Assembly: GCA_007693955.1 (NCBI GenBank)
Contig: RECR01000055.1
Coordinates: forward strand, 1 to 62,969
Source of the DNA: Gloeocapsa sp. DLM2.Bin57
Lineage (GTDB): Bacteria; Cyanobacteriota; Cyanobacteriia; Cyanobacteriales; Gloeocapsaceae
DNA length: 62,969 nucleotides
Direction of reading: 5' to 3'
Shown one piece after another: positions 10,978-24,220 of this stretch. The stretch's first letter is position 1. Every line of letters starts with the position of its first letter. Position numbers and translations under genes: made by a program. Under the pieces are notes generated by a model. The model worked only from the letters and a program-made list of their open reading frames with translations, was not told the origin of the DNA and ran no database searches.

Positions 10978-12168
10978 ATGAAAAACTTATCTACAGTCTC
11001 TATAGGGATTATTGGAGCAGGTCCACAAGCTTTAACATTAGTTACACATTTATTACAGAAGAGAAAACAATGGCGCGATCGCTTAATAGTGATTGATCCT
11101 CATGGAGATTGGTTAAGGCAATGGTATCAGCAATTTGCAGCTTTAGAAATCCCCCATTTAAGGTCTCCTGTAGTCCATCACCCTGATCCTCATCCCTATG
11201 CTTTAAGAGGTTTTGCGGAGAATCGACCTGATGAATTATTTAACCCCTATGACTTACCAGGTACAAAACTGTTTGAAGATTTTTGCACCGAGGTAGTCAA
11301 AAGTTGGGGATTAGAAAATAGAGTTTACCGAGGTAAAGTAATTAAGATTGTACCATGTAGGGGTAATTTTCAGCTATGTTTAACCGATGGAGAGATAATT
11401 AATGTTCGTAGAGTCGTATTAGCTACTAATCAAGGTGAGATTCAAATACCTGCTTGGGTGAATCAAATTAAGACGAAATATCCTCAAGATAGATTATTAC
11501 ACTCTCAACAAGTTAACTTAGCTAACTTACAACTAAAAGATGAACACATATTAATTATCGGAGGAGGTTTAACCAGTGGTCATTTAGCCATAGGAGGAGT
11601 CAATAGAGGAGCTAAAATAACTTTGATGACGAGAAGAGACTTACAGATAAAACTCTTTGACGCTGATCCAGGTTGGTTAGGACCAAAATATCTCAAAGGG
11701 TTTAATGCTGAGTTAAACTGGTATCGACGCTGGGAAATGATTCAACAAGCGCGCAATGGTGGTTCAATAACTCCTAAAATAAGTTGGGAATTAAGAAGAA
11801 GTAAAAATGTGGAATTTTGGGAAAATTGTCAAGTAAAGGAAGTACAATGGGAAGAGCATAAATGGAGGGTAATTTGTAGCAATGGTATAGAGAAAGAATT
11901 TGAGCGTATTTGGTTAGCAACAGGAACAACATTTAATGTCAAAAATAATCCCTTGTTAACAGAAGTTTTAGAAGCTTATCCTACGGATATTATTCAAGGT
12001 TTACCCGTGATTGATCAATATCTACGCTTACCTAAAAGTGAATTTTACTTTATGGGTGCATTAGCAGGGTTACAAGTTGGACCTGTTGCGCGTAATTTAG
12101 CAGGAGGAAGAAAAGCTAGCGAAATGATTGTAGAGGGAATGATTAAACATAGTCAGATTGCTGTATGA
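10978..12168 (+). CDS. FAD/NAD(P)-binding oxidoreductase, ornithine/lysine N-monooxygenase-like
   Basis: The 396-residue protein has an FAD-binding GIIGAGPQALTLV motif at about 10-22 and a second dinucleotide motif IIGGGLTSGH near 193-202. It resembles the FAD/NAD(P)-binding branch that includes siderophore-type N-hydroxylases, though substrate residues cannot be judged by eye. The Fur box 24 bp upstream supports an iron-starvation role. The 3' end overlaps crcB by 4 bp (ATGA), so the genes are translationally coupled. Alternative roles include other flavin oxidoreductions of iron or sulfur metabolism. Confidence 0.7.
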   Translation: MKNLSTVSIGIIGAGPQALTLVTHLLQKRKQWRDRLIVIDPHGDWLRQWYQQFAALEIPHLRSPVVHHPDPHPYALRGFAENRPDELFNPYDLPGTKLFEDFCTEVVKSWGLENRVYRGKVIKIVPCRGNFQLCLTDGEIINVRRVVLATNQGEIQIPAWVNQIKTKYPQDRLLHSQQVNLANLQLKDEHILIIGGGLTSGHLAIGGVNRGAKITLMTRRDLQIKLFDADPGWLGPKYLKGFNAELNWYRRWEMIQQARNGGSITPKISWELRRSKNVEFWENCQVKEVQWEEHKWRVICSNGIEKEFERIWLATGTTFNVKNNPLLTEVLEAYPTDIIQGLPVIDQYLRLPKSEFYFMGALAGLQVGPVARNLAGGRKASEMIVEGMIKHSQIAV

Positions 12169-12545
12169 GACCTTTTTTAGCTATTATTTTAGGAGCAATT
12201 CCAGGAGTTTTAAGCAGATATTTATTATTTACATGGTTAAACGATCCTAATTTAGGTAATCTTTATCCTTTTGGTACTTTTTTCGTTAATGTCTCTGGTT
12301 GTTTGTTGATGGGATTTATTTCTAGTTTAATGTTAGAACGTTGGAGTATCAATGAAGAAATTCGCTTATTGTTGACTACTGGTTTTTTGGGATCTTATAC
12401 CAGTTTTTCTACCTATGAATTAGACTCTGTTAAAATCTTACTAGAAAGTAATTGGATTAAGGAGGGTTTATATTGGATTGGTACTCCTTTAATGGGGATT
12501 ATTAGTTTTAGTTTGGGGACAATTTTAGCGAAAAGATTCGATTAG
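12165..12545 (+). CDS. crcB: Fluoride channel CrcB/Fluc, first copy
   Basis: The 126-residue protein has four hydrophobic segments. Fluc landmarks are an N-terminal GAIPGVLSRY, the GTFFVNVSGC segment with the pore Asn, and GFLGSYTSFSTY with the central sodium site and phenylalanine box region. It exports fluoride by forming dual-topology dimers. It is coupled to the Fur-box gene through an ATGA overlap and has no room for its own leader, so no fluoride riboswitch controls it directly. A second crcB converges on it with a 21-bp tail overlap. Confidence 0.9.
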   Translation: MRPFLAIILGAIPGVLSRYLLFTWLNDPNLGNLYPFGTFFVNVSGCLLMGFISSLMLERWSINEEIRLLLTTGFLGSYTSFSTYELDSVKILLESNWIKEGLYWIGTPLMGIISFSLGTILAKRFD

Positions 12546-12959
12546 TCTAAACAGCAAGATTCCTGATTCAGCAGCAAGAAAACCGAGAATTAAGGTACTT
12601 AAAGAATATTTTACCGCTAGTTGATATTGTTGCGATCGCCATAAATTCATGGTATCGAGAATATAAGAAGAAAAGGTGGTATATGCACCTAAAAAACCTA
12701 CTAAAATTAACTTATCCCAAGGAAAAAATACAAACTCTTTTTGATATAGCCAAGTAGCTGAACAACCAATTAAAAACGTTCCTGTTATGTTAACAAATAA
12801 GGTACCATAAAAAACTCTATAATTAAAATATCTGGTTGCTAGCAAAATAACATAATAGCGCAGGAGAGCACCGATTATTCCACCGAGGACGATCGCTGTT
12901 ACAATCAAGATGTTTATTTTAAAATAGTCACATTGATTATAGCCAAAAATGAGTACCAA
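12525..12959 (-). CDS. crcB: Fluoride channel CrcB/Fluc, second copy
   Basis: Up to 144 residues with Fluc motifs GGIIGALLRYY, GTLFVNITGTFL and GFLGAYTTFSSY. It is a divergent paralogue of the neighbouring crcB and may form a heterodimer, as in two-gene Fluc systems. The longest frame starts at a TTG (12959) overlapping the fibrillin gene start. A downstream TTG at 12911 would give the more usual short N-terminus, so the start is unresolved. Tail-to-tail overlap with the first copy is unusual, because paired crcB genes normally stand in tandem. Confidence 0.85.
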   Translation of the reverse strand: MVLIFGYNQCDYFKINILIVTAIVLGGIIGALLRYYVILLATRYFNYRVFYGTLFVNITGTFLIGCSATWLYQKEFVFFPWDKLILVGFLGAYTTFSSYILDTMNLWRSQQYQLAVKYSLSTLILGFLAAESGILLFRLIESFR

Positions 12960-14365: not shown

Positions 14366-17300
14366 ATGACTAATCAACTAGTAGAAGATAACTCTCGTGA
14401 TGATCACCTTCTTTTAAATTACGAGGATTTGTTGAAAACTATTTTAGCAGAATTAAACAAGACAGGGGAGTTATTTAAGCTTTCTGGTGATAAACGTCGT
14501 TTAATTGTACAAATTGATACCATTGCTAAAGCGATCGCTATTCTGAATATCTCTAGTCCTATTTTAGGACGAGAAGAATTAACACGTACAGCTACTATTA
14601 ACTTTAGTCCCGAATTTGCCCCTAAATTTAATACCTACATCACCGATATTAAAGATACCCTCTCTTCTCTTTTAAAAGATTATCTAGCTACAGAAAATTT
14701 TTCTCTGACAGAATTAGTAACCAATCTCTCCCAATATAAGGCTAACCAACCTGAGTTAAATTTTCTCTATCCTTTTGCACCTTTAAATAATATTGCCCAA
14801 CAATCATTAGTAATTAATCCTGAAGCTACGGGAAGTACTTCCGCTTTAAAACTGCACAAACTAACTATTCAGGTTAAAAACTTACAACGGTTTACCAATA
14901 GTTTAAGACAGGGATTAGAGAATTATGTAGAAGACTTAACCGATGATGAAGAGGAGTTAGAAGATATCCAAGCTATTTTAGCAGAAGGAAAAGATATTGA
15001 TTACCTTAGAGAGTTTGTTAACCAGGAAACCCTAGGACAATTAAAAAAGGAAGCTTGTCTTAAATATCTTGAGTATATCGCTGAGAATATCTCCGAGTAT
15101 AATCACGACATTTTTTATTTAAAAGACTTGATTAGACGGTTAAAACTTCTCAAAGAATTTTTTAATCAAGATCATGCTGATAACTATTATAAAATCAGTT
15201 ATGAAGGTCAAGAAATTGACTTGAAAACTGCTTTAGCCCAATCTTACGCTTTTGACTGTTTACCGATTATTCCTATAGTTACTGGTAACTTGGGGGAGAT
15301 TAGCGGAGATAATCAAGACAATCCTGAGTTTGTGTTTGGCTTAAAGCTGAAGTTAAATAGTCCGGTCGAAAAAACTAAGAGTAAATCTGCTTTAGCTTAT
15401 CACCTAGACTTCATTAATCCTAACAGTCAACTATATAAGGAAGAGTTAGCCAAAGCAACTAAGAAAGAAAGATTCTATACAAAAGTTTTTCAGCGTTTCT
15501 GCGTCTATTTCTTTGTCTTAACTTCTCGTTGTCAACCCGATAGCAAGAACTATCACCAAGCGGATGAATTAAATTATGATCCTGTGGAGAGTTTTAATAG
15601 TAAATGTTTTGGGATTCTGAAAGGAAGTGATGATCAAGCCAAAAAGGACTTACTGATTAACTTTAATAAAGGTTTAAAAGATAGTAGATTTAAAATAGAA
15701 CATAAGTTAGCTAAACTAGCTAAACTCCTCAAAGAATTTCTTACCCAAGGTACAATCCTTAAACCCCAAGAATATCCTGTACATATCGAGATTCAAAGAG
15801 GTATTTTAGAGTCAGAGTGTGAAGATATCATCACCAATCAAACTTTACTTAAAAATAAACGCCAACCTAAAAAAGATCTTAGTCAAGTTGTTGTTAGTGA
15901 AGCTGCAATCAATCCCTCTGCGTTTTGTCAAATAGAAGCTAAATTGACTATTGAAGATATTCGTTATCATCTTCAGGGAGAAAAACAACTCTTTAACATG
16001 GAATATGATTTAGAAGGTATCCAGACTCTCCCGATACTTTTTTCTCCTAAACATGAAATCGTCAGAGAGAAGTATCAAAGCTTCTCTAACCAGAAACTAG
16101 TCAACTTTCCCTATAGCTTAGATATCAAAACTTATAACTCAACCCAACAGTTTAGATACTATTTTACCTTCTCTCTCCTTACTTATATCTGTTTAAAAAT
16201 TATCACCGACGAGATTAAGCTCAAGTTATTCTTACCCATACTCAGACTACACCTTCAGGGAAAAGATAATAATGCAGATACTCATAATCCCGAAAGTGAG
16301 ATGAGAGACTATTCTAAAGTACTCGCCCATTTATTGAGTATGGATCATCTCGCTAATTCCCAAGGTATCGATATTAAGAAAGGTAATAAATTTAAAACCA
16401 AAAATGCTTTAAATTCTCTCTACTCAGTTATCCCTAAAAACTTCTCCTTTCCCTCTACTCAATACACACCAACTTTAGATAAAGTAGCTTTAATCATCGT
16501 TAGTAGTCATGAATGCGATGGGAGTAAACAAGCTAGTCGAGACAATCGTCTTAGTAATCTGATTGGGGAAGTAATTACTATGGATTTACTCCCTTCGGGT
16601 AAAGTACAAGTTAAAACCTTGAAGAGTTTAAGCGCTAATTATGTCAATGAGATTATGTATCGTCAACCCACAATTATTCTAGACACCGTTACTAATCTCT
16701 ATCACCAAGGTTATCGTCATATTTTCTATGTGGCTAAAACTCCTTATACCAGCAATCTCCATCTAACTAAATCAGATAATAACGATAACCTCTTTTTCCT
16801 GTCTCGGGATTTAATTAAATATATCTATCAAGACTATCAAGACTTGTATCTCTATCCCGTCTTTTTTGAACAATATTATGTACGTAAAGTTAAGGGGGAT
16901 TTAACCCAATCTCTTTCTTTACAAGATAGTCGTCAACTGCAAGACTTATTTAATGATCCTACTCAGAAAGGGGTTATCTTTTTTAACCTGTTTAATGGCA
17001 TTACTGTTAAGGAGGATTCTTTCTATAATGGCGTTATTTCTTATTCTACTCTCGTAGGTGTCTATAAAGATCTTCTCGATGACCAAGCTATCCGTCAAAA
17101 CCTGGTTTATAACGAAGGGCAAAAAAATGATTTATTGCAATATCTGACTTTATTACATTTCTCGCGCTACGAAAAAAGTTCTAGTCAAAAGAGTCCACAT
17201 AGTCTCAAACTTAACCCCTATCAAGATATCGTCAGCGACCAATCCGTCTCCAAACTCTCTTTGTTTAAACATCCCCAAAATAAGACTGATTTTAATCTTC

Positions 17301-17371
17301 TGGCTTTTTTAACCGAAGTCCGTCGCGTTTTAACCGTTACCCCACAACCCGAAAACCATGAATCAAATTAA
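14366..17371 (+). CDS. Large protein of unknown family, first gene of candidate novel module
   Basis: 1001 residues; I do not recognise the family. The first third is helical and charged (coiled stretches near 160-260). The middle (about 270-640) is mixed alpha/beta. The last third (about 700-980) alternates hydrophobic strands and helices: VALIIVSS, then YRHIFYVAK, YPVFFEQYYV, KGVIFFNLFNG and a final LLQYLTLLHFSRY. The order of these elements loosely recalls a PIWI domain without its acidic catalytic residues; this is inference only. The gene overlaps the helicase-like gene by 14 bp, indicating translational coupling and probably a shared complex. No signal peptide or membrane segment is evident. 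Confidence 0.6.
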   Translation: MTNQLVEDNSRDDHLLLNYEDLLKTILAELNKTGELFKLSGDKRRLIVQIDTIAKAIAILNISSPILGREELTRTATINFSPEFAPKFNTYITDIKDTLSSLLKDYLATENFSLTELVTNLSQYKANQPELNFLYPFAPLNNIAQQSLVINPEATGSTSALKLHKLTIQVKNLQRFTNSLRQGLENYVEDLTDDEEELEDIQAILAEGKDIDYLREFVNQETLGQLKKEACLKYLEYIAENISEYNHDIFYLKDLIRRLKLLKEFFNQDHADNYYKISYEGQEIDLKTALAQSYAFDCLPIIPIVTGNLGEISGDNQDNPEFVFGLKLKLNSPVEKTKSKSALAYHLDFINPNSQLYKEELAKATKKERFYTKVFQRFCVYFFVLTSRCQPDSKNYHQADELNYDPVESFNSKCFGILKGSDDQAKKDLLINFNKGLKDSRFKIEHKLAKLAKLLKEFLTQGTILKPQEYPVHIEIQRGILESECEDIITNQTLLKNKRQPKKDLSQVVVSEAAINPSAFCQIEAKLTIEDIRYHLQGEKQLFNMEYDLEGIQTLPILFSPKHEIVREKYQSFSNQKLVNFPYSLDIKTYNSTQQFRYYFTFSLLTYICLKIITDEIKLKLFLPILRLHLQGKDNNADTHNPESEMRDYSKVLAHLLSMDHLANSQGIDIKKGNKFKTKNALNSLYSVIPKNFSFPSTQYTPTLDKVALIIVSSHECDGSKQASRDNRLSNLIGEVITMDLLPSGKVQVKTLKSLSANYVNEIMYRQPTIILDTVTNLYHQGYRHIFYVAKTPYTSNLHLTKSDNNDNLFFLSRDLIKYIYQDYQDLYLYPVFFEQYYVRKVKGDLTQSLSLQDSRQLQDLFNDPTQKGVIFFNLFNGITVKEDSFYNGVISYSTLVGVYKDLLDDQAIRQNLVYNEGQKNDLLQYLTLLHFSRYEKSSSQKSPHSLKLNPYQDIVSDQSVSKLSLFKHPQNKTDFNLLAFLTEVRRVLTVTPQPENHESN

Positions 17372-20300
17372 ATCACAATTACGAGATGACCAAGGTAGAT
17401 TATTTGAGGTTGGCTTTAATAGCGGTATCCTCGCTTATCTCCACCAACAACAAATTAAAACCCCTTGGGTTGATTTCTATCGCCCTGATTTAGAACAACT
17501 GCAACTTACCAAGTTAGTCAACAAATTGATTGAGCGTAGTCAAACCATTAGCACAGTCAATAAAAAAATTATCACGAGGTGGAGTCAGCTAATTCTGTTA
17601 CGAGGATTTTTGGGAGGTTTGAGTTTTGTCAGGGAATATCTCGAATCCCAAAGCTGGAATAGGTTTGAGCTAATAGAGGTGCTATACTTTCAGTGTAGCT
17701 TTTGTGACGATAATAGCTTAAACACACATAGTAAGGGCGATTATAGCTTATCATCTTCGATTTTAAACGAGTTCAGCCAAAATGTCAAGAACTTGGCTAA
17801 AAATTTAGAGGAAGTAGATATAAATAGGTATCTAGAAAAGGGGGAATTCTTAAAAGCAGATACCCTAATTTTATGGCGTTATAGAAAAGAGTATCGCTTA
17901 TTAGTTGTGGATGCTTCTTTATTTTCTTTAGACGCGACTCAAGATTTAACTAACCCTGAATTCATCGAATTAACCAAAAAAAAATTAATGAGAGAAATGG
18001 GTTATATCAGATCCAAAAGCATTTTTAATCGTTTAAGTATCGATACGGGAGAGAGGGAAGATTTGAGTTATGCGTTTACTCCGAAGATGAAAGATTACTT
18101 TAGGGCTTTTAAGGTTGAAAATAAAAACAAAGAAAGTATCAAATTAATTCAAGCGGGAAGTTATGCTTATAGCTTCTATCAATTTTTACTTAAACAACAG
18201 ATAATCGAGAAGGAAAGTAGAATAATTATGACAGCGATTGGTTATAGCGATCGCGGCATTAGTTCTTTGGTAGTTACTCCAGAGAATATAGATATACTGA
18301 AAAACTGTCATGAGATTTATAAACAAGATTACTCTAAGGTAGAAATCCAAGAAGCTAGAGAAAGAGTTTTTAATCTAATTAGACTGCAAATCAACAAAAG
18401 CTTTGACCAAGGTAAAACATTCGTTAATCAATTATTGTCAATCTCCCCAAGACAAACCGCTGCTTTTTCCCACCAAGAAAGATTAAGCAATTTTGCTAAT
18501 ACTGCAGCTAATATATCTTTTGAGTTAGCCCAAAGTTTATCCCTTGGAGATAACTCTAGTTTATCCCTTAGAAATGCTCATGCAGAATTAATTACCCAAT
18601 CCCTAACAAGTGAGGCTAATTATTTATTTCTCACGGGAAATCCTGGTATAGGCAAAACAACAGCAGTAGTTAAGTTTCTCAAAGAACATATCCCTGAAGG
18701 CTTTCTCTTTTTATACATAAGTCCGCGTATCCAAGTCAATAAAGATATCATTGAGAAATTTAAGGACAAAGAATCAGGTAAACTTTATGACGATCGCCTT
18801 TTCTGTCTGAGTAGCCATAGCCAATTAATCAATAATTATGGTGCATTACGATATCAACATATCGTTAACTATATAGCCGAAAAATATCCCGAAAACTTTA
18901 GCAGAAAATCTGTACAATTTCTTAACTTTACTCAAGAAGACTCTCCTATTAATTCCTCTTCTAAGATTAAACGTCAGAATGAAAATACCCTCAGAGTAGT
19001 TAATCAAGGTAAACCAGGAGTATTAGCTAGTATTGCCAATGCAATTTATACCCTAATCGATGAAGAAATATCTAACCAAATCGTCGCTACTACTTCTCTA
19101 CAATCTTTACGAGAAACTTATAACGGTAAAACAACTCTGGAACATTTAAACCTTATTTTTCAAAGTGCTTATAACTCTAGTCAAAACTGTGTGATTCCCC
19201 AAAATATGCGTCAAATCTCCCGACGCATTAAACACATATTTATTATGATTGATGAAATCACAGGGAGTGAAAATGGCGCAGCTTTTCTTAAAGGTATTAG
19301 CGATTTTACTAAGAGATATCAATTATGCAACCCTGAATATGGATTCAATACTAAAATCATCGTCGCTGATGCTTCTATAGTAGAACAAAGTGTTATCAAT
19401 CAGCATTTAAGTACTATTAATCCTGAACCTGATAAAATCTTTTTTAGGAAAGCGACTACTACCCCCCAAGCTTTAACCATCAATAATTTCTGCTTTCAGA
19501 AAAAACCAGCGATAATTATTAACGCCAATTCCTATCCCGCTAATAACCTAGACTTAACCTATAGAGTCTTTGTGGAAGCGAAAGAGTTTGATGCTGAAAA
19601 ACAAGACTTAAAACGAGATGATGGTAAATTACTCCATGAATTAGAAAGCAGTATTCTACAAGATATTCACTCCCTTTCGGAAGAAGATGGTCAAATTTTA
19701 ATCTATATCCAAGACAAGCAAAAACTGCAAACTATCCTAGATAAGTTAAACGCGGTTAGAAGTAAACCCCTAGAGAAAAATAAAGACTATCTCGAAGTTA
19801 GGTCTAACCTTAGTGAAAGAGAGAAAAAAGAATTACATCAATATAAAGAAGATCAAAAAATCAAATTAATTTTCATGACTTCAGCGGGAAGTAGAGGTCT
19901 TTCTTTTCCCTATGTTAAACACATCCTCGTAGTTATTCCCACCTTTCAAGTAGAACAAAATATCATGGAGATTCTCCAGGTGATTTATCGTGGTAGAGGA
20001 AAAGAAGAAATAGATAAACAAGATAAGCAAATCATTTTTTATCTCGCTGAAAAAGCTATCTATTACCCCGATACCGATGAAGAATTAGCCCGTCAAGAAA
20101 CCCTACTTAATATCCTCAATACCTTGTTAATTATTAAAGTCGCTATGATGACGAGAATCAAAGGTGCGGGAAATTTAGGTAAACAAGCAATAGTCTTGAT
20201 TCCCATTGGGGGTAAATCCACTGTCGCTGCTGGAGCAACTTTTTCTAGTAAGATTAATAATCTTCTGGATTTACTATACCAAGAATATCGACTTAATCCT

Positions 20301-21035
20301 AGTCATAAGATTTTGAAGGAAACCCATCAACAATTACAAGAATTATTGAGTAAAACCCATTTTTCTCTAAGTCCTCCCCAAGAGGCTAATTCCTATTTAG
20401 GTTCTCTAGGAACTTTCTCGGATAACTTTACTAGTGCAATTAATGATAACTTCGCGGAGTTATTAAGTTTTGGCAATCTGGAAAAAAGTTATATCGTTGG
20501 TGGTTTAATTATTGTCCCAACTAAAGAAAAACCCTTAGCTAAACAATATCATCTACGGTTAGCTAAAATTATCCAAACCAATTCTAGTCAATTATTAAAG
20601 TCTCTCCAAGCTATTAAGCTGAATCAGGAACAATATAATATTAATCTTCGTTACGCGACTCAAGATGCTATTCATTTAATCGAAGAAATTCAAACAGAGA
20701 TGAACAATAGTCAAAATTTACAAGAAACTAGTAATTATTTGGATCAATATTACGCTTTCCCTTTATTTACTCTCCTAAGTCTGGAGATTTTGTCTGAATA
20801 TTTAGAAACAGAAGACGATGAGGAAACTAGTTTTAAGCGAGTCTTGTTAATCTATATTAAATCTCTGCACAATGTTTATGATATTTTACCTATTGGTTAT
20901 AAATATCAAGATTTCCCTTTTATTTTGTTTAGGAGTTATAGTCTTGAAAAAATGCGTCAGCAATTATTTACTCAAAACTATTTATTTAATTCCACTGAGC
21001 TAAATATTGTTAATTTAATTCAATCTCAAGAATAG
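17358..21035 (+). CDS. SF2 helicase-like ATPase with extra N- and C-terminal domains
   Basis: 1225 residues. The Walker A motif GNPGIGKTT lies at about 426-434 and a DEIT Walker B near 631, unusually far apart. A motif V-like SAGSRGLSFPY is near 841 and a motif VI-like QVIYRGRG near 872-880. This supports an SF2-type nucleic-acid translocase at about 420-900. The N-terminal 400 residues hold a strand-rich block with D168 and D185 (ADTLILW, LLVVDAS) that could be a degenerate nuclease-like fold, lacking the usual lysine. The C-terminal 300 residues are unassigned. It is coupled to the gene upstream; the two probably act together on DNA or RNA. Confidence 0.7.
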   Translation: MNQIKSQLRDDQGRLFEVGFNSGILAYLHQQQIKTPWVDFYRPDLEQLQLTKLVNKLIERSQTISTVNKKIITRWSQLILLRGFLGGLSFVREYLESQSWNRFELIEVLYFQCSFCDDNSLNTHSKGDYSLSSSILNEFSQNVKNLAKNLEEVDINRYLEKGEFLKADTLILWRYRKEYRLLVVDASLFSLDATQDLTNPEFIELTKKKLMREMGYIRSKSIFNRLSIDTGEREDLSYAFTPKMKDYFRAFKVENKNKESIKLIQAGSYAYSFYQFLLKQQIIEKESRIIMTAIGYSDRGISSLVVTPENIDILKNCHEIYKQDYSKVEIQEARERVFNLIRLQINKSFDQGKTFVNQLLSISPRQTAAFSHQERLSNFANTAANISFELAQSLSLGDNSSLSLRNAHAELITQSLTSEANYLFLTGNPGIGKTTAVVKFLKEHIPEGFLFLYISPRIQVNKDIIEKFKDKESGKLYDDRLFCLSSHSQLINNYGALRYQHIVNYIAEKYPENFSRKSVQFLNFTQEDSPINSSSKIKRQNENTLRVVNQGKPGVLASIANAIYTLIDEEISNQIVATTSLQSLRETYNGKTTLEHLNLIFQSAYNSSQNCVIPQNMRQISRRIKHIFIMIDEITGSENGAAFLKGISDFTKRYQLCNPEYGFNTKIIVADASIVEQSVINQHLSTINPEPDKIFFRKATTTPQALTINNFCFQKKPAIIINANSYPANNLDLTYRVFVEAKEFDAEKQDLKRDDGKLLHELESSILQDIHSLSEEDGQILIYIQDKQKLQTILDKLNAVRSKPLEKNKDYLEVRSNLSEREKKELHQYKEDQKIKLIFMTSAGSRGLSFPYVKHILVVIPTFQVEQNIMEILQVIYRGRGKEEIDKQDKQIIFYLAEKAIYYPDTDEELARQETLLNILNTLLIIKVAMMTRIKGAGNLGKQAIVLIPIGGKSTVAAGATFSSKINNLLDLLYQEYRLNPSHKILKETHQQLQELLSKTHFSLSPPQEANSYLGSLGTFSDNFTSAINDNFAELLSFGNLEKSYIVGGLIIVPTKEKPLAKQYHLRLAKIIQTNSSQLLKSLQAIKLNQEQYNINLRYATQDAIHLIEEIQTEMNNSQNLQETSNYLDQYYAFPLFTLLSLEILSEYLETEDDEETSFKRVLLIYIKSLHNVYDILPIGYKYQDFPFILFRSYSLEKMRQQLFTQNYLFNSTELNIVNLIQSQE

Positions 21036-21039
21036 GGGA

Positions 21040-21076
21040 GTAGGGGGAGAGACGGGAGAAGGGAGAAGGGAGCTTT
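21040..21076 (+). repeat. G-rich tract with G-quadruplex potential
   Basis: Just after the helicase gene stop the plus strand has five runs of three or more G separated by 4-6 bases (GGGG, GGGGG, GGG, GGG, GGG). This satisfies the usual quadruplex pattern. A related G-rich stretch followed by similar AT-rich and CCTAATACC-type sequence stands at 45651-45770, so this is one of a family of dispersed intergenic repeats. It lies between convergent genes and could slow or end transcription. Confidence 0.5.
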
Positions 21077-21137
21077 TAAGTATATTATATGTTAATAATA
21101 ATACTTAAACCTAATACCTAAACCTTAACTCAGAACT

Positions 21138-22187
21138 TTATTTATTCTTCTGTTGGGTTTTGGCTTGTTCTAAAGCGATTTCTTTCATAGCTTCAAAAGA
21201 ATTACGATTAGACGTACCTTCAATCGCTTTAACGGCTAAATCCTGTACTTGTTTTTGGGCTAATTCTAGCTGTTTAGTCAGACTTTCTAGACGTGTTTGT
21301 TGATTAGTGATACTCTCTTCTAAAGCTTGAATGCGTAATTGATAATTCTGTTTTTCTCCCTCGATTTCTTTTTGACGTAAATCAGTTTTAACTTTAGCTT
21401 GATAAGTTCCAATTCCCTTACCTTCTTCTTGACCTTTTTTCTTTTTAGCTTCTAATTCAGCAGGAAAAGCTTCTACTTGTTGTTTAACTTCTGTATATTT
21501 AGCTTCCGATTCGGCGATCGCTTTTTCTCTTTCTTGCCATGCTTTTTCTTGTTGTTGACGAATGTCGGCTAATTCTTGATATAAAGCGTTTTTAGTTTGC
21601 TCATATTCTTCTTGACTCAAAGTTAATTCTAACTCTAGGTTGTAATTGTATTCTTCTGCTTCCCGTCTTTTCTCTTTTTCGTAGTCTTCGTTTCTACCTT
21701 TAACTTCTCTATTATGAGTTTCTTTTTCTTTTGACCAAGCTAAACGTAAATCTTGAATCTCTTGTAATAAAGTCTCGCTTTGTTCCCTCAATTCAAGTTC
21801 AAAAGCTTTAGCGCTATTTTGATACTCAATAATTAACTCGTCGAGGGTATCTTCGGTAATTTCTTCTAGTTCGTATAATTCCGTTAGTTGTGCTTTTTCC
21901 TGTGTTAAAGCTGTTTGTAACTTACCTAAACTAGTTGCTTCAGTAATCAACTGTTCTGATAAATTACTAACTGTACCACCAAAACTGAGTTTCAGTTGTT
22001 CTAAATTGGCTAAAGTGTCATTGAGATTAGTAGTCATAGTTTCAGGAGGTTGAGATGGTTGAGGAGGAGAGACTTTAGGTTGTTGTTGTAACTGTTTGAG
22101 TTGTTTTTCTATCCCTTGTTTTTCTTGTTTTAATTCCTCAAAAGCTTCTAGGATTTGTGCTTTAGTACTTTTAGAGTTAATAGTCAT
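21138..22187 (-). CDS. Coiled-coil protein, second of a paralogous pair
   Basis: The 349-residue protein is almost entirely charged heptad-like sequence (Glu, Lys and Gln rich, about 60-320). A Pro/Gln-rich break lies near 38-50 and a short C-terminal tail contains IEGTSNRNSFEAMKEIALEQ. The segment LEQLKLSFGGTVSNLSEQLI parallels MASLQLDFGNIINSLSQRLN in the neighbour at 22206, showing paralogy. Family not recognised. Long coiled coils of this kind can be filament-forming, scaffold or SMC-like accessory proteins. An AGGAG ribosome site stands 8-9 bp before the ATG, and 18 bp separate it from the upstream paralogue. Confidence 0.65.
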   Translation of the reverse strand: MTINSKSTKAQILEAFEELKQEKQGIEKQLKQLQQQPKVSPPQPSQPPETMTTNLNDTLANLEQLKLSFGGTVSNLSEQLITEATSLGKLQTALTQEKAQLTELYELEEITEDTLDELIIEYQNSAKAFELELREQSETLLQEIQDLRLAWSKEKETHNREVKGRNEDYEKEKRREAEEYNYNLELELTLSQEEYEQTKNALYQELADIRQQQEKAWQEREKAIAESEAKYTEVKQQVEAFPAELEAKKKKGQEEGKGIGTYQAKVKTDLRQKEIEGEKQNYQLRIQALEESITNQQTRLESLTKQLELAQKQVQDLAVKAIEGTSNRNSFEAMKEIALEQAKTQQKNK

Positions 22188-22205
22188 ATCTTTATTTCTC
22201 CTTTA

Positions 22206-23183
22206 CTAAACTTGACCTTGAAATGCTCTAGCTGCTAAACTTTGAGCTTGAGTATTGGCTACTTGTAATTGGGCGATGATTTCGTTAATTTGTTCTGTTT
22301 GTTTAGCTACAGTAGCTTCTAGAGATTGTAATTTTAATTCGTATCCTTGTTTAGTAGCTTCCCATTCTTTCTCGATTAAATCTGACTTGACTTTACTGTC
22401 TCTTTCTGCTTCTTTGATTCCTTCTACCCTAGCTTCTTCATAAGCTTTTTGTAACGCTGCGGGGAAACCTTCTACTTGTTTTTGTTTGGCTGCAAAATCA
22501 GCTTGATTATCTGTTAAATATTTCTCTCTTTCACTCCAGAGTTTCTCTTGACGTTGATTAGTTTCTGTTAATTCTCTCTCTTGTAAACGTTTTACTTCTT
22601 CGTATTCGTCCATCTCTATTTTGCGTTGTCTTTCTATCTCATAAGTTATATCAGCTTTGGTACGTTCTCTAGTTTGTAAAAGTAGTTCTCTTTCTTCGTT
22701 GATTCTAGCAGTAAATTCTAGTTGTTCTTTAGTCCAAACTTTATGAGTTTGCTCTTGTTCAAGGGTTATTGCTTCCCGTTGTTGATTAATTTGATTTTCT
22801 AAATGTCTGAGTCTTTCTTGATGTTCTTGTCTGAGAATGTGTAAAGCATCCGCTACCAATCTAACTTGTCGCAATTTAGCGAGGTTTTCGGTTTCAACTT
22901 GGATCGCTTTTTGTAATTGTTCTAATTTTGTTGATTCGTTGTTAAGACGTTGTGATAATGAGTTGATAATGTTACCAAAATCTAACTGTAACGACGCCAT
23001 ACCATTGACGATATTATCTAAGGTATATTCGGCAACTGTAGTTAATAATTCTTGATTTTTGGCTTTTTCGGCTTCTTCTTCTTTGGTAGCTACTTTAGAA
23101 TCACTGCTTTGATAATCTGTTAGTAGTTTAGCGAAGTCTTGGAGAATCTGTTGTTTACTGTCTTGTGGTGTTGGTTGAGTCAT
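22206..23183 (-). CDS. Coiled-coil protein, first of a paralogous pair
   Basis: About 325 residues from the ATG at 23183. The frame runs back to 23213, but that start would lie inside the operator repeat. The protein has a short N-terminus, a conserved hydrophobic-acidic segment (MASLQLDFGNIINSLS), then continuous coiled coil, ending in VANTQAQSLAARAFQGQV. It is a paralogue of the gene at 21138 and forms an operon with it. It is transcribed away from the XRE/ImmA pair across a 100-bp divergent promoter with two identical 16-bp repeats. Function unknown. Confidence 0.65.
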   Translation of the reverse strand: MTQPTPQDSKQQILQDFAKLLTDYQSSDSKVATKEEEAEKAKNQELLTTVAEYTLDNIVNGMASLQLDFGNIINSLSQRLNNESTKLEQLQKAIQVETENLAKLRQVRLVADALHILRQEHQERLRHLENQINQQREAITLEQEQTHKVWTKEQLEFTARINEERELLLQTRERTKADITYEIERQRKIEMDEYEEVKRLQERELTETNQRQEKLWSEREKYLTDNQADFAAKQKQVEGFPAALQKAYEEARVEGIKEAERDSKVKSDLIEKEWEATKQGYELKLQSLEATVAKQTEQINEIIAQLQVANTQAQSLAARAFQGQV

Positions 23184-23194
23184 CAGCCTTAGCC

Positions 23195-23246
23195 TTGATT
23201 TTTTAGTCAACAACTCTAGTCTAAATCATGTTGATTTTTTAGTCAA
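23195..23246. promoter_or_regulatory. Twin operator candidates TTGATTTTTTAGTCAA
   Basis: The 16-bp sequence TTGATTTTTTAGTCAA occurs twice without mismatch, at 23195-23210 and 23231-23246. Each has dyad ends (TTGA...TCAA), as expected for a dimeric helix-turn-helix protein. They fill the divergent promoter between the coiled-coil operon and the xre gene, so the XRE protein encoded at 23284 is the obvious candidate ligand, with autoregulation and control of the coiled-coil operon. Confidence 0.65.
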
Positions 23247-23283
23247 GATTATTTAGAATAAAATAAATAGCCAAATCACTAGT

Positions 23284-23622
23284 ATGACTGAGAGTTTTAG
23301 TAGATTAATTCGTGCATCGAGAAAAAATAAAGGGTATAGTCAGAGAGAGTTAGGGGAGCTAGTGGGTTTAGACTTTACCTACTTATCTAAATTAGAAAAC
23401 GATCGCGCCGAATATCCCCCCAAAGAGGAGATAATTAGGAAAATAGCCCATCATCTAGATTTAAACGAAGAAGAATTAGTCTTTTTAGCGGGGCGTATCC
23501 CTCAGAAAGAAGAAGACTTACTTAAACAACATTACCAAGAATTGCCCACTTTATTTCGGCGAATGCGAGAAAATCCCGAATTTGCCCGTCAAGTGTTTCA
23601 ACAAGCGTTCAAAGTAGAGTAA
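23284..23622 (+). CDS. XRE-family repressor
   Basis: The 112-residue protein has an N-terminal XRE helix-turn-helix (residues 5-65: LIRASRKNKGYSQRELGELV, then LDFTYLSKLEND) and a short helical C-terminus. It is followed after 1 bp by an ImmA/IrrE-type metalloprotease gene. In such pairs the protease can cleave the repressor after a stress signal and so derepress the regulon. Two identical operator-like repeats lie just upstream. Confidence 0.9.
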   Translation: MTESFSRLIRASRKNKGYSQRELGELVGLDFTYLSKLENDRAEYPPKEEIIRKIAHHLDLNEEELVFLAGRIPQKEEDLLKQHYQELPTLFRRMRENPEFARQVFQQAFKVE

Positions 23623-23623
23623 A

Positions 23624-24220
23624 ATGAGTTTAATCAAAGAATTTCGCTTTATATCTAAAGTCGAGATAGAGAGAATAGCTAACCAAATTATCGAGGAAAT
23701 GTCCCAAACTAGAAACTATTACCCTAAATTTCCTCTCGACGCTAGTCGTGTAGCTGAGTTTTTGGGATTAGATCTAGTCTGGGATTTTATCCCTCCCGAT
23801 GCAGAAGGAGAAATAGCCGCGAGAATTTTACCTGTACAAAGATTAATTGAAATCAACGAAAACTTAACTCAATGGGGATTAGGTTTAACAGAATCAACCA
23901 TAGCCCATGAAATAGGACATTGGGTTTTACATATTAATCATCAAGAAATAGCTAGTTATAAAGAACAAAAAATAGTCTGTCATAATCAACAACATCTTAA
24001 AGGTAGAGAATGGCAAGCCCAATATTTTGCTAGTTGTTTATTAATGCCCAAAAAAGAATTAAAAAGGGTAAGTAAAGGTAAAAATATCTATAAATGGTCT
24101 GATTTATACGCGATCGCTGCTGAATTAGGGGTAACAATTTCTAATTTAGTACATCGTCTCCAGGATCTAGGTTGGCTTGAGTTAAATTCTGATTCTCGAA
24201 AGATTTTACCTGTAAATTAA
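23624..24220 (+). CDS. ImmA/IrrE family metallopeptidase
   Basis: The 198-residue protein has the zinc-protease motif AHEIGHWVLH (His95, Glu96, His99) and the later FASCLLMPKKELKR segment typical of the ImmA/IrrE family. A winged-helix-like C-terminus follows (DLYAIAAELGVTISNLVHRL). Family members cleave XRE or DdrO repressors, which is consistent with the adjacent xre gene. The stop codon overlaps the next ATG by one base (TAATG), but the following hydrolase seems functionally unrelated. Confidence 0.9.
   Translation: MSLIKEFRFISKVEIERIANQIIEEMSQTRNYYPKFPLDASRVAEFLGLDLVWDFIPPDAEGEIAARILPVQRLIEINENLTQWGLGLTESTIAHEIGHWVLHINHQEIASYKEQKIVCHNQQHLKGREWQAQYFASCLLMPKKELKRVSKGKNIYKWSDLYAIAAELGVTISNLVHRLQDLGWLELNSDSRKILPVN

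What the first reader, a model, noticed from the sequence alone, without database searches (positions are those of the whole stretch)
14366..24220. Candidate undescribed module: 1001-aa unknown + helicase + two coiled-coil proteins + XRE/ImmA switch
Two very large translationally coupled genes converge on a two-gene coiled-coil operon, which diverges from an XRE repressor and ImmA-type protease. Seen directly: the 14-bp overlap, Walker and helicase motifs, coiled-coil composition, and two perfect operator repeats in the divergent promoter. Known: XRE/ImmA pairs control stress- or damage-induced mobile and defence functions. Inference: the region is a regulated nucleic-acid-processing system, perhaps antiviral, sitting between ordinary housekeeping genes. 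I match it to no named defence system.
Basis: partly seen in the sequence, partly recalled or inferred. Interest (0 to 1): 0.85.

Follow-up and report, generated by a model that had tools for sequence, protein, structure and literature searches.

The report
Hidden Argonaute paired with helicase-nuclease
Two large unannotated neighbouring genes look like a divergent, probably non-cutting Argonaute protein and a partner that unwinds and cuts nucleic acid, a likely bacterial defence against plasmids or viruses that standard domain searches miss; the other four genes in the reported block form a separate unit.

Summary
In detail: six ORFs, a 14-bp overlap, two perfect 16-bp repeats. The six-gene module does not: two independent conserved units lie side by side. 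Unit 1 (14366-21035) is a pair, A (1001 aa) and H (1225 aa); A lies within 1 kb upstream of H in 55 of 60 assessable loci from cyanobacteria, Chloroflexota, Firmicutes and Proteobacteria. No credible domain match was found for A, but its AlphaFold model (pLDDT 87.5) matches Argonautes: Foldseek ranks 1-25 and, in VIA-align, best Z 10.7. Its catalytic positions appear lost (my mapping); a QG in its MID domain is invariant (60 of 60). H joins an SF2 helicase to an N-terminal region with RecB/Cas4-like nuclease residues (60 of 60). At least 8 of 15 examined non-syntenic loci carry known defence genes nearby (no random-locus control). Best reading: a guide-dependent anti-plasmid or anti-phage system working like DdmDE/ApsAB, with an N-terminal nuclease; ApsAB sequences could not be compared. 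Unit 2 (21138-24220) is a coiled-coil pair under an XRE/ImmA switch; relatives of that switch face a Cas4-like nuclease and a true Argonaute in five other genomes.

The parts
14366..17371 (+). Gene A, 1001 aa: divergent Argonaute-like protein, predicted non-cutting
   Evidence: No credible Pfam/PADLOC/NCBIfam/PHROGs match; AlphaFold model pLDDT 87.5; Foldseek ranks 1-25 are Argonautes; VIA-align best Z 10.7, 406 residues
16028..16450 (+). MID-like domain of A (about residues 555-695) with invariant Q666-G667
   Evidence: Secondary structure of the model; Q666 and G667 in 60 of 60; boundaries are my estimate
16463..17335 (+). PIWI-like (RNase H fold) domain of A (about residues 700-990)
   Evidence: Model and fold matches; boundaries are my estimate; tetrad positions appear substituted (my mapping)
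17358..21035 (+). Gene H, 1225 aa: SF2 helicase with N-terminal nuclease-like region
   Evidence: Helicase_C 1.6e-7; helicase fold matches; motifs
17358..18407 (+). N-terminal nuclease-like region of H (about residues 1-350): E17, D168, D/E185, K258, K262, Q265, Y269
   Evidence: Each kept in 60 of 60 relatives, acidic at 185 in 60 of 60; no profile match
17358..17371 (+). 14-bp overlap of A and H
   Evidence: 43 of 55 pairs elsewhere overlap or lie within 30 bp
21138..22187 (-). Coiled-coil protein 1 (349 aa); separate unit 2
   Evidence: phrog_29668 4e-16; conserved beside the second coiled-coil gene
22206..23213 (-). Coiled-coil protein 2 (335 aa as listed; likely start at 23183); unit 2
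   Evidence: phrog_29668 6e-10; start read
23195..23210 (.). Operator-like repeat 1, TTGATTTTTTAGTCAA; unit 2
23231..23246 (.). Operator-like repeat 2, identical; unit 2
23284..23622 (+). XRE-type repressor (112 aa), CapH-like; unit 2
   Evidence: HTH_3 6e-12; capH 6e-10
23624..24220 (+). ImmA/M78-type protease (198 aa), CapP-like; unit 2
   Evidence: Peptidase_M78 3e-11; capP 2e-17

Best explanation
A and H are a two-protein, guide-dependent defence system against foreign nucleic acid (plasmids, phages or other mobile elements). A is a divergent Argonaute whose PIWI domain no longer cuts. It binds a short guide through its MID pocket and finds matching foreign DNA, then recruits or activates H, which unwinds and degrades the target with its SF2 motor and its N-terminal RecB/Cas4-type nuclease. 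Shown by computation: strict pairing of the two genes, the Argonaute fold of A (prediction plus fold comparison), helicase motifs and fold, invariant nuclease-type residues in H, defence genes near at least 8 of 15 examined loci. Inferred: guide binding, loss of cutting by A, nuclease activity and recruitment of H, foreign DNA as the target. The coiled-coil pair with its XRE/ImmA switch is a second unit that happens to lie next door.
For: Pairing: 55 of 60 H genes have A within 1 kb upstream, 43 of the 55 overlapping or within 30 bp; distances of A and H correlate at 0.986 (48 pairs) and 0.946 (29 of subfamily I). Fold of A. QG in MID 60 of 60, K706 54 of 60, like the Y-x3-K..QG..K motif of ApsB, where K413A abolished activity (PMC11096173). 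Nuclease-type residues of H 60 of 60. Neighbours: type I restriction, DrmA/DrmB, HmaB/HmaC, HamB, SngA/SngB, Cas10b, a whole pPIWI-RE system. Copies on plasmids.
Against: No profile links A to Argonautes or H's N-terminus to nucleases. H lacks a lysine two residues after the second acidic residue. In cyanobacterial subfamily I the pair often sits at fixed chromosomal places beside housekeeping genes, unlike typical defence islands. The defence-neighbour count has no random control and 10 of 25 listed loci were left out. No experiment.
Confidence: 0.68

Rival explanations
1. A-H is a distant member of the published ApsAB/DdmDE family rather than a separate arrangement; the nuclease moved and the gene order was swapped within one family.
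For: Same two kinds of protein; the same QG in the MID motif; the paper places some ApsAB-like systems in cyanobacteria and some in islands with Shango genes (PMC11096173), and one locus here has SngA and SngB.
Against: ApsA and DdmD carry the nuclease at the C-terminus; H carries it, by motif, at the N-terminus. Published ApsA motifs GFGKS, DELH, QAVGRVER differ from GNPGIGKTT, DEIT, QVIYRGRG in H. ApsB is said to lack the PIWI RNase H fold; A appears to have it. No ApsA or ApsB sequence could be fetched for a direct test.
Confidence: 0.3
2. A-H is a chromosomal maintenance system: a guide-bound Argonaute-like protein and a helicase-nuclease that help finish replication or resolve recombination intermediates.
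For: Fixed chromosomal positions in many cyanobacteria beside purS/purQ/fur-like or pheT-like genes (names my reading); TtAgo is said to decatenate chromosomes and two cyanobacterial pAgos to help division under topoisomerase inhibitors (PMC10269773, start of abstract in the listing).
Against: Patchy presence (33 strong matches in 291 cyanobacterial genomes), copies on plasmids, broken copies and defence neighbours elsewhere.
Confidence: 0.15
3. One reading: all six genes are one module, with XRE/ImmA controlling the large pair.
For: They are adjacent here; in L097 an XRE/ImmA-like pair also lies directly downstream of H, but there it faces a pPIWI-RE operon.
Against: 0 of 36 other A/H regions had the other four genes; 0 of 20 regions of the other unit had A or H; in the other genome of the genus they are on different contigs.
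Confidence: 0.04

Closest known systems
DdmDE of Vibrio cholerae (passages of PMC12409362 read)
   Same: A catalytically inactive Argonaute-like protein paired with an SF2 helicase that also carries a PD-(D/E)XK nuclease; two genes
   Different: DdmD has its nuclease at the C-terminus, H by motif at the N-terminus; no sequence match to any PDB chain named as DdmD or DdmE
ApsAB of Escherichia coli ST38 (passages and outline of PMC11096173 read)
   Same: Argonaute-like protein with a Y-x3-K..QG..K-type MID motif plus helicase-nuclease; broad distribution
   Different: Nuclease C-terminal in ApsA; different helicase motif strings; ApsB sought downstream of apsA while A is upstream of H; ApsB reported without PIWI fold
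pPIWI-RE system (abstract and first part of section 6 of PMC3702460 read)
   Same: PIWI-type protein with a helicase and a restriction-type nuclease in one operon
   Different: Three genes in the order REase, DinG helicase, PIWI; A and H match none of its models, and in L097 a complete pPIWI-RE system stands beside A-H
Long-B pAgos with partner nucleases (passages of PMC6299218)
   Same: Inactive PIWI with nuclease partners
   Different: A is not recognised by the Piwi model PF02171; the partner is a combined helicase-nuclease
CapH/CapP regulators (for unit 2)
   Same: XRE repressor plus M78 protease; PADLOC capH 6e-10, capP 2e-17
   Different: No CBASS model among the matches of the six genes; the switch faces a coiled-coil pair

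Membership tests
Argonaute/PIWI superfamily (protein A) | MID-PIWI fold | tested here: met
   AlphaFold model and PDB fold searches: Foldseek ranks 1-25 Argonautes, best E 2.2e-5; VIA-align best Z 10.7, 406 aligned
Argonaute/PIWI superfamily (protein A) | Recognised by the Piwi model PF02171 | tested here: not met
Argonaute/PIWI superfamily (protein A) | Guide 5'-end pocket in MID (Y/H/R-x3-K, Q, K) | tested here: inconclusive
   QG 60 of 60, K706 54 of 60; Y647 in 20 of 26 of subfamily II, K651 in 26 of 34 of subfamily I; residue mapping is mine
Argonaute/PIWI superfamily (protein A) | DEDX catalytic tetrad (needed for active members only) | tested here: inconclusive
   By my mapping the positions are S/T714 (59 of 60) and A/S790 (60 of 60); no residue-level structural alignment was available
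DdmDE | Argonaute-like gene paired with an SF2 helicase gene | tested here: met
DdmDE and ApsAB | Nuclease at the C-terminus of the helicase | tested here: not met
   Nuclease-type residues lie at 17-269, before the helicase core at about 400-950; that this region is a nuclease rests on motifs
DdmDE | Sequence kinship with DdmD/DdmE | tested here: inconclusive
   Profiles of A and H against PDB chains at E 10 listed none under those names; I could not confirm that the chains are in the copy
ApsAB | Sequence kinship with ApsA/ApsB | not tested
   No ApsA or ApsB sequence could be fetched; pattern search found none
ApsAB | QG in the MID motif | tested here: met
   60 of 60; motif
DdmDE and ApsAB | Elimination of plasmids | not testable with these tools
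   Needs an experiment
pPIWI-RE | Match to pPIWI-RE models | tested here: not met
   No match for A or H in Pfam (E 1) or PADLOC (E 1); three relatives of A and two of H none at 0.01
pPIWI-RE | Gene order REase, DinG helicase, PIWI | tested here: not met
   Two genes, A then H
RecB/Cas4-like nuclease (N-terminus of H) | E, D, (D/E)xK, QxxxY residues | tested here: inconclusive
   E17, D168, D/E185, K258, K262, Q265, Y269 in 60 of 60, but no K two residues after 185; no profile match

The most novel reading that the evidence does not exclude
A-H is an undescribed class of Argonaute defence, separate in origin from DdmDE, ApsAB and pPIWI-RE: a PIWI-bearing, non-cutting Argonaute that sequence models do not see, coupled to a helicase with an N-terminal nuclease whose lysine lies on the QxxxY helix. 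It is spread over several bacterial phyla and held for long times at fixed chromosomal sites in filamentous cyanobacteria.
Probability: 0.4. Interest if true: 0.82.

Novelty: new variant of a known kind. Interest (0 to 1): 0.7.

Why it matters
A widespread two-gene Argonaute system that the domain libraries searched here do not see would enlarge the set of guide-dependent bacterial immune systems. It would show that pairing a non-cutting Argonaute with a helicase-nuclease exists in more than one domain arrangement. It gives cyanobacterial genetics a concrete candidate barrier to plasmid and phage entry, and makes the question of where such Argonautes get their guides testable in new hosts.

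Tried and rejected
Six-gene module: rejected by neighbourhood comparison. Membership in pPIWI-RE: rejected on models and gene order. Profile-profile alignment of A to 14 cyanobacterial pAgos and 4 pPIWI-RE proteins (one of them a 189-aa fragment) found nothing, but pAgo versus pPIWI-RE, a published relation, also failed, so the test has no power. hhalign of H's N-terminus to five Cas4-like nucleases found nothing, nor did Pfam on 32 N-termini. A third conserved gene was looked for: kinases, purS/purQ/fur-like and pheT-like genes near A-H look like lineage synteny. A DNA pattern for the published ApsA motif matched in 0 of 3 and 4 of 321 genomes; no hit lies in an ORF reading that motif. No row of the fold lists is named DdmD or DdmE; the lists are capped at 50 rows, so this proves nothing. 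I could not confirm that the coiled-coil pair is alr4504/alr4505 of Nostoc 7120 (that these are ZicK/ZacK is recall only).

Papers: PMC11096173 passages, abstract and outline; PMC12409362, PMC6299218, PMC8147232 and PMC7766704 passages; PMC3702460 abstract, outline and the first of two parts of section 6; PMC10269773 start of abstract in a listing. No paper on this A-H pair turned up in searches; these cover open-licence PubMed Central papers only.

Controls not run: density of defence genes at random loci. Selection: one search listed 194 neighbour proteins from 25 loci; I scanned 100 from 15 of these loci, leaving out nine cyanobacterial loci and Ramlibacter (L103, L119, L120, L122, L124, L127, L132, L134, L135, L141), and 20 of the 100 singly, chosen mostly by length. 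One search shows 25 of 180 families, so its absences say nothing.
Full report
Check of the observation. The ORFs, the 14-bp overlap, the helicase motifs, the coiled-coil pair, the XRE and M78 genes and the two perfect 16-bp repeats are present as described. GC content over the region is 0.33-0.36, a little below parts of the flanks, without a sharp break.

Two units, not one. I fetched regions of up to 20 kb around 36 A or H matches from unnamed cyanobacterial genomes. In none did the coiled-coil, XRE or ImmA genes match above 40 bits, while 33 of 36 show H (in L057 and L061 the contig ends in or just after A, L032 has A alone). Conversely, 20 regions around the coiled-coil or ImmA genes showed neither A nor H; in 12 of them the coiled-coil pair lies divergent from XRE, in 9 of these 12 with ImmA beside XRE; 4 have the coiled-coil pair without XRE and 4 have XRE/ImmA without the pair. 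In the other genome of the same genus the units are on different contigs. Each occurs without the other: G019 and G024 have the coiled-coil pair and no A, G022 and G119 have A and no coiled-coil match.

Distribution of A-H. Of 291 cyanobacterial genomes 44 match A at E 0.001: 33 strongly (E below 1e-60) and 11 weakly, 8 of these with stop codons inside. Of 65 H genes over 1000 aa, 5 begin at a contig edge; of the other 60, 55 have A within 1 kb upstream on the same strand, 43 of these overlapping or within 30 bp. The five exceptions are L067, L070, L092, L135 and L138; in L070 and L092 A lies further upstream. Distance matrices of A and H correlate at 0.986 (48 pairs) and 0.946 (29 of subfamily I); shared host ancestry contributes. 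Seven plasmid records match A, six over at least 80% of it; PLSDB calls six of the seven conjugative. In the two that I opened H follows A, annotated helicase-related or helicase-like. No phage record matched A.

What A is. Pfam, PADLOC, NCBIfam and PHROGs give nothing credible. I suspected a PIWI-like C-terminus from the sequence and folded A with 59 relatives from related-loci loci. The model has mean pLDDT 87.5 and pTM 0.87. Foldseek against the PDB gives Argonautes at ranks 1-25 (best E 2.2e-5; 12 rows at E 0.001 or better), then a jump to E 0.39 for other folds. All but a few of the 50 VIA-align titles name an Argonaute or PIWI protein (4kpy and 8xih say only protein-DNA complex, 8u72 says SPARTA); the best is 1yvu, Z 10.7, rmsd 6.3, 406 residues over 159-987, and MID-PIWI structures reach Z 8-9.6. 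Elements after residue 700 fit an RNase H fold (my reading). Comparing by hand with AGO2 as I remember it, the first catalytic aspartate falls on S/T714 (59 of 60) and the one after beta-4 on A/S790 (60 of 60), so A is probably non-cutting; D718 is kept in 53 of 60 but seems to lie beyond the catalytic position. Q666-G667 is invariant (60 of 60) and K706 kept in 54 of 60. Zongo et al. give Y-x3-K..QG..K for ApsB and found that K413A abolished its activity (PMC11096173). Here subfamily II keeps the Y (20 of 26) and subfamily I the K (26 of 34) of the first pair.

What H is. The core is an SF2 helicase (model pLDDT 85.3 for residues 1-1199). The first 350 residues carry E17, D168, K258, K262, Q265 and Y269 in 60 of 60 sequences and an acidic residue at 185 in 60 of 60. 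I read this as a RecB/Cas4-type nuclease whose lysine has moved to the QxxxY helix; the Cas4-like partners of true pAgos show DxK and QAxxY in a similar order. No profile supports it, so it stays a motif argument.

Context. In cyanobacterial subfamily I A-H often sits at fixed places: 20 fetched loci beside purQ- and fur-like genes and 12 beside a pheT-like gene (gene names are my reading, and some contigs were fetched twice). Elsewhere the neighbours differ. Of 194 neighbour proteins from 25 such loci I scanned 100 from 15 loci, then 20 singly. At least 8 of the 15 loci have a defence gene at E 1e-15 or better: L093 type I restriction enzyme and a QatC-like protein below the NCBIfam cut-off, L096 DrmA, DrmB and MkoC, L097 a complete pPIWI-RE system, L099 HmaB and HmaC, L116 type I methyltransferase, L130 HamB, L131 SngA and SngB, L142 Cas10b and a CARF protein. 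Of the other 7, one protein each of L098, L106, L121 and L129 gave nothing singly; L113, L133 and L139 were not scanned singly. Housekeeping genes such as tRNA ligases are also among the neighbours. There is no random-locus control.

Mechanism. In DdmDE an inactive, DNA-guided Argonaute recruits an autoinhibited helicase-nuclease to plasmid DNA (PMC12409362). The simplest reading of A-H is the same division of labour. It differs in the place of the nuclease and, from ApsAB, in gene order; no kinship in sequence was detected to solved chains, and ApsA/ApsB could not be compared. I therefore say that A-H works like DdmDE/ApsAB and do not file it as a member.

Unit 2. The XRE/ImmA pair resembles CapH/CapP. 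TTGA-N8-TCAA (coiled-coil loci, one N9 site in L176) or TTGA-N9-TCAA (pAgo loci) lies upstream of XRE in 20 of 22 loci searched. Piwi-model matches were found in 14 of 146 cyanobacterial genomes; on five of these contigs, opened because one search had placed an ImmA match nearby, relatives of this switch face an operon of a nuclease-like gene and the pAgo; three of the five nuclease-like proteins were scanned and match PDDEXK_1. A lead: two neighbouring hypothetical proteins of Nostoc, alr4504 and alr4505, rise about 4- and 20-fold under BMAA (PMC8147232); whether they are this coiled-coil pair is not shown.

Noticed in passing
window 23284-24220; L214, L215, L217, L220, L222: Relatives of the window's XRE/ImmA switch face a Cas4-like (PDDEXK_1) gene plus a true pAgo in five cyanobacterial genomes, with operator-like TTGA-N9-TCAA palindromes; the same kind of switch faces the coiled-coil pair with TTGA-N8-TCAA.
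   Followed up: partly
L178, L180, L181, L182: Between XRE and the coiled-coil pair lie three further unknown genes (about 86-110, 233-251 and 122-135 aa) in the orientation of the pair, suggesting a larger operon; the three from L181 match no Pfam or PHROGs family.
   Followed up: partly
L097 6669-22742: In Thermosporothrix hazakensis A-H stands beside an XRE/ImmA-like pair and a complete pPIWI-RE operon (REase, DinG, PIWI), two different PIWI-type systems in one island.
   Followed up: partly
L059, L062/L114, L063, L118, L143: Broken copies: A or H split by stops or deletions, and in L062/L114 one ORF that joins the first half of A to the last part of H.
   Followed up: no
L068, L088: Tandem copies: a second A follows H directly, in L068 with the start of a second H at the contig end.
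   Followed up: no
window 12165-12959: Two small convergent membrane proteins that look like CrcB/Fluc fluoride-channel homologues (my reading; no search run).
   Followed up: no
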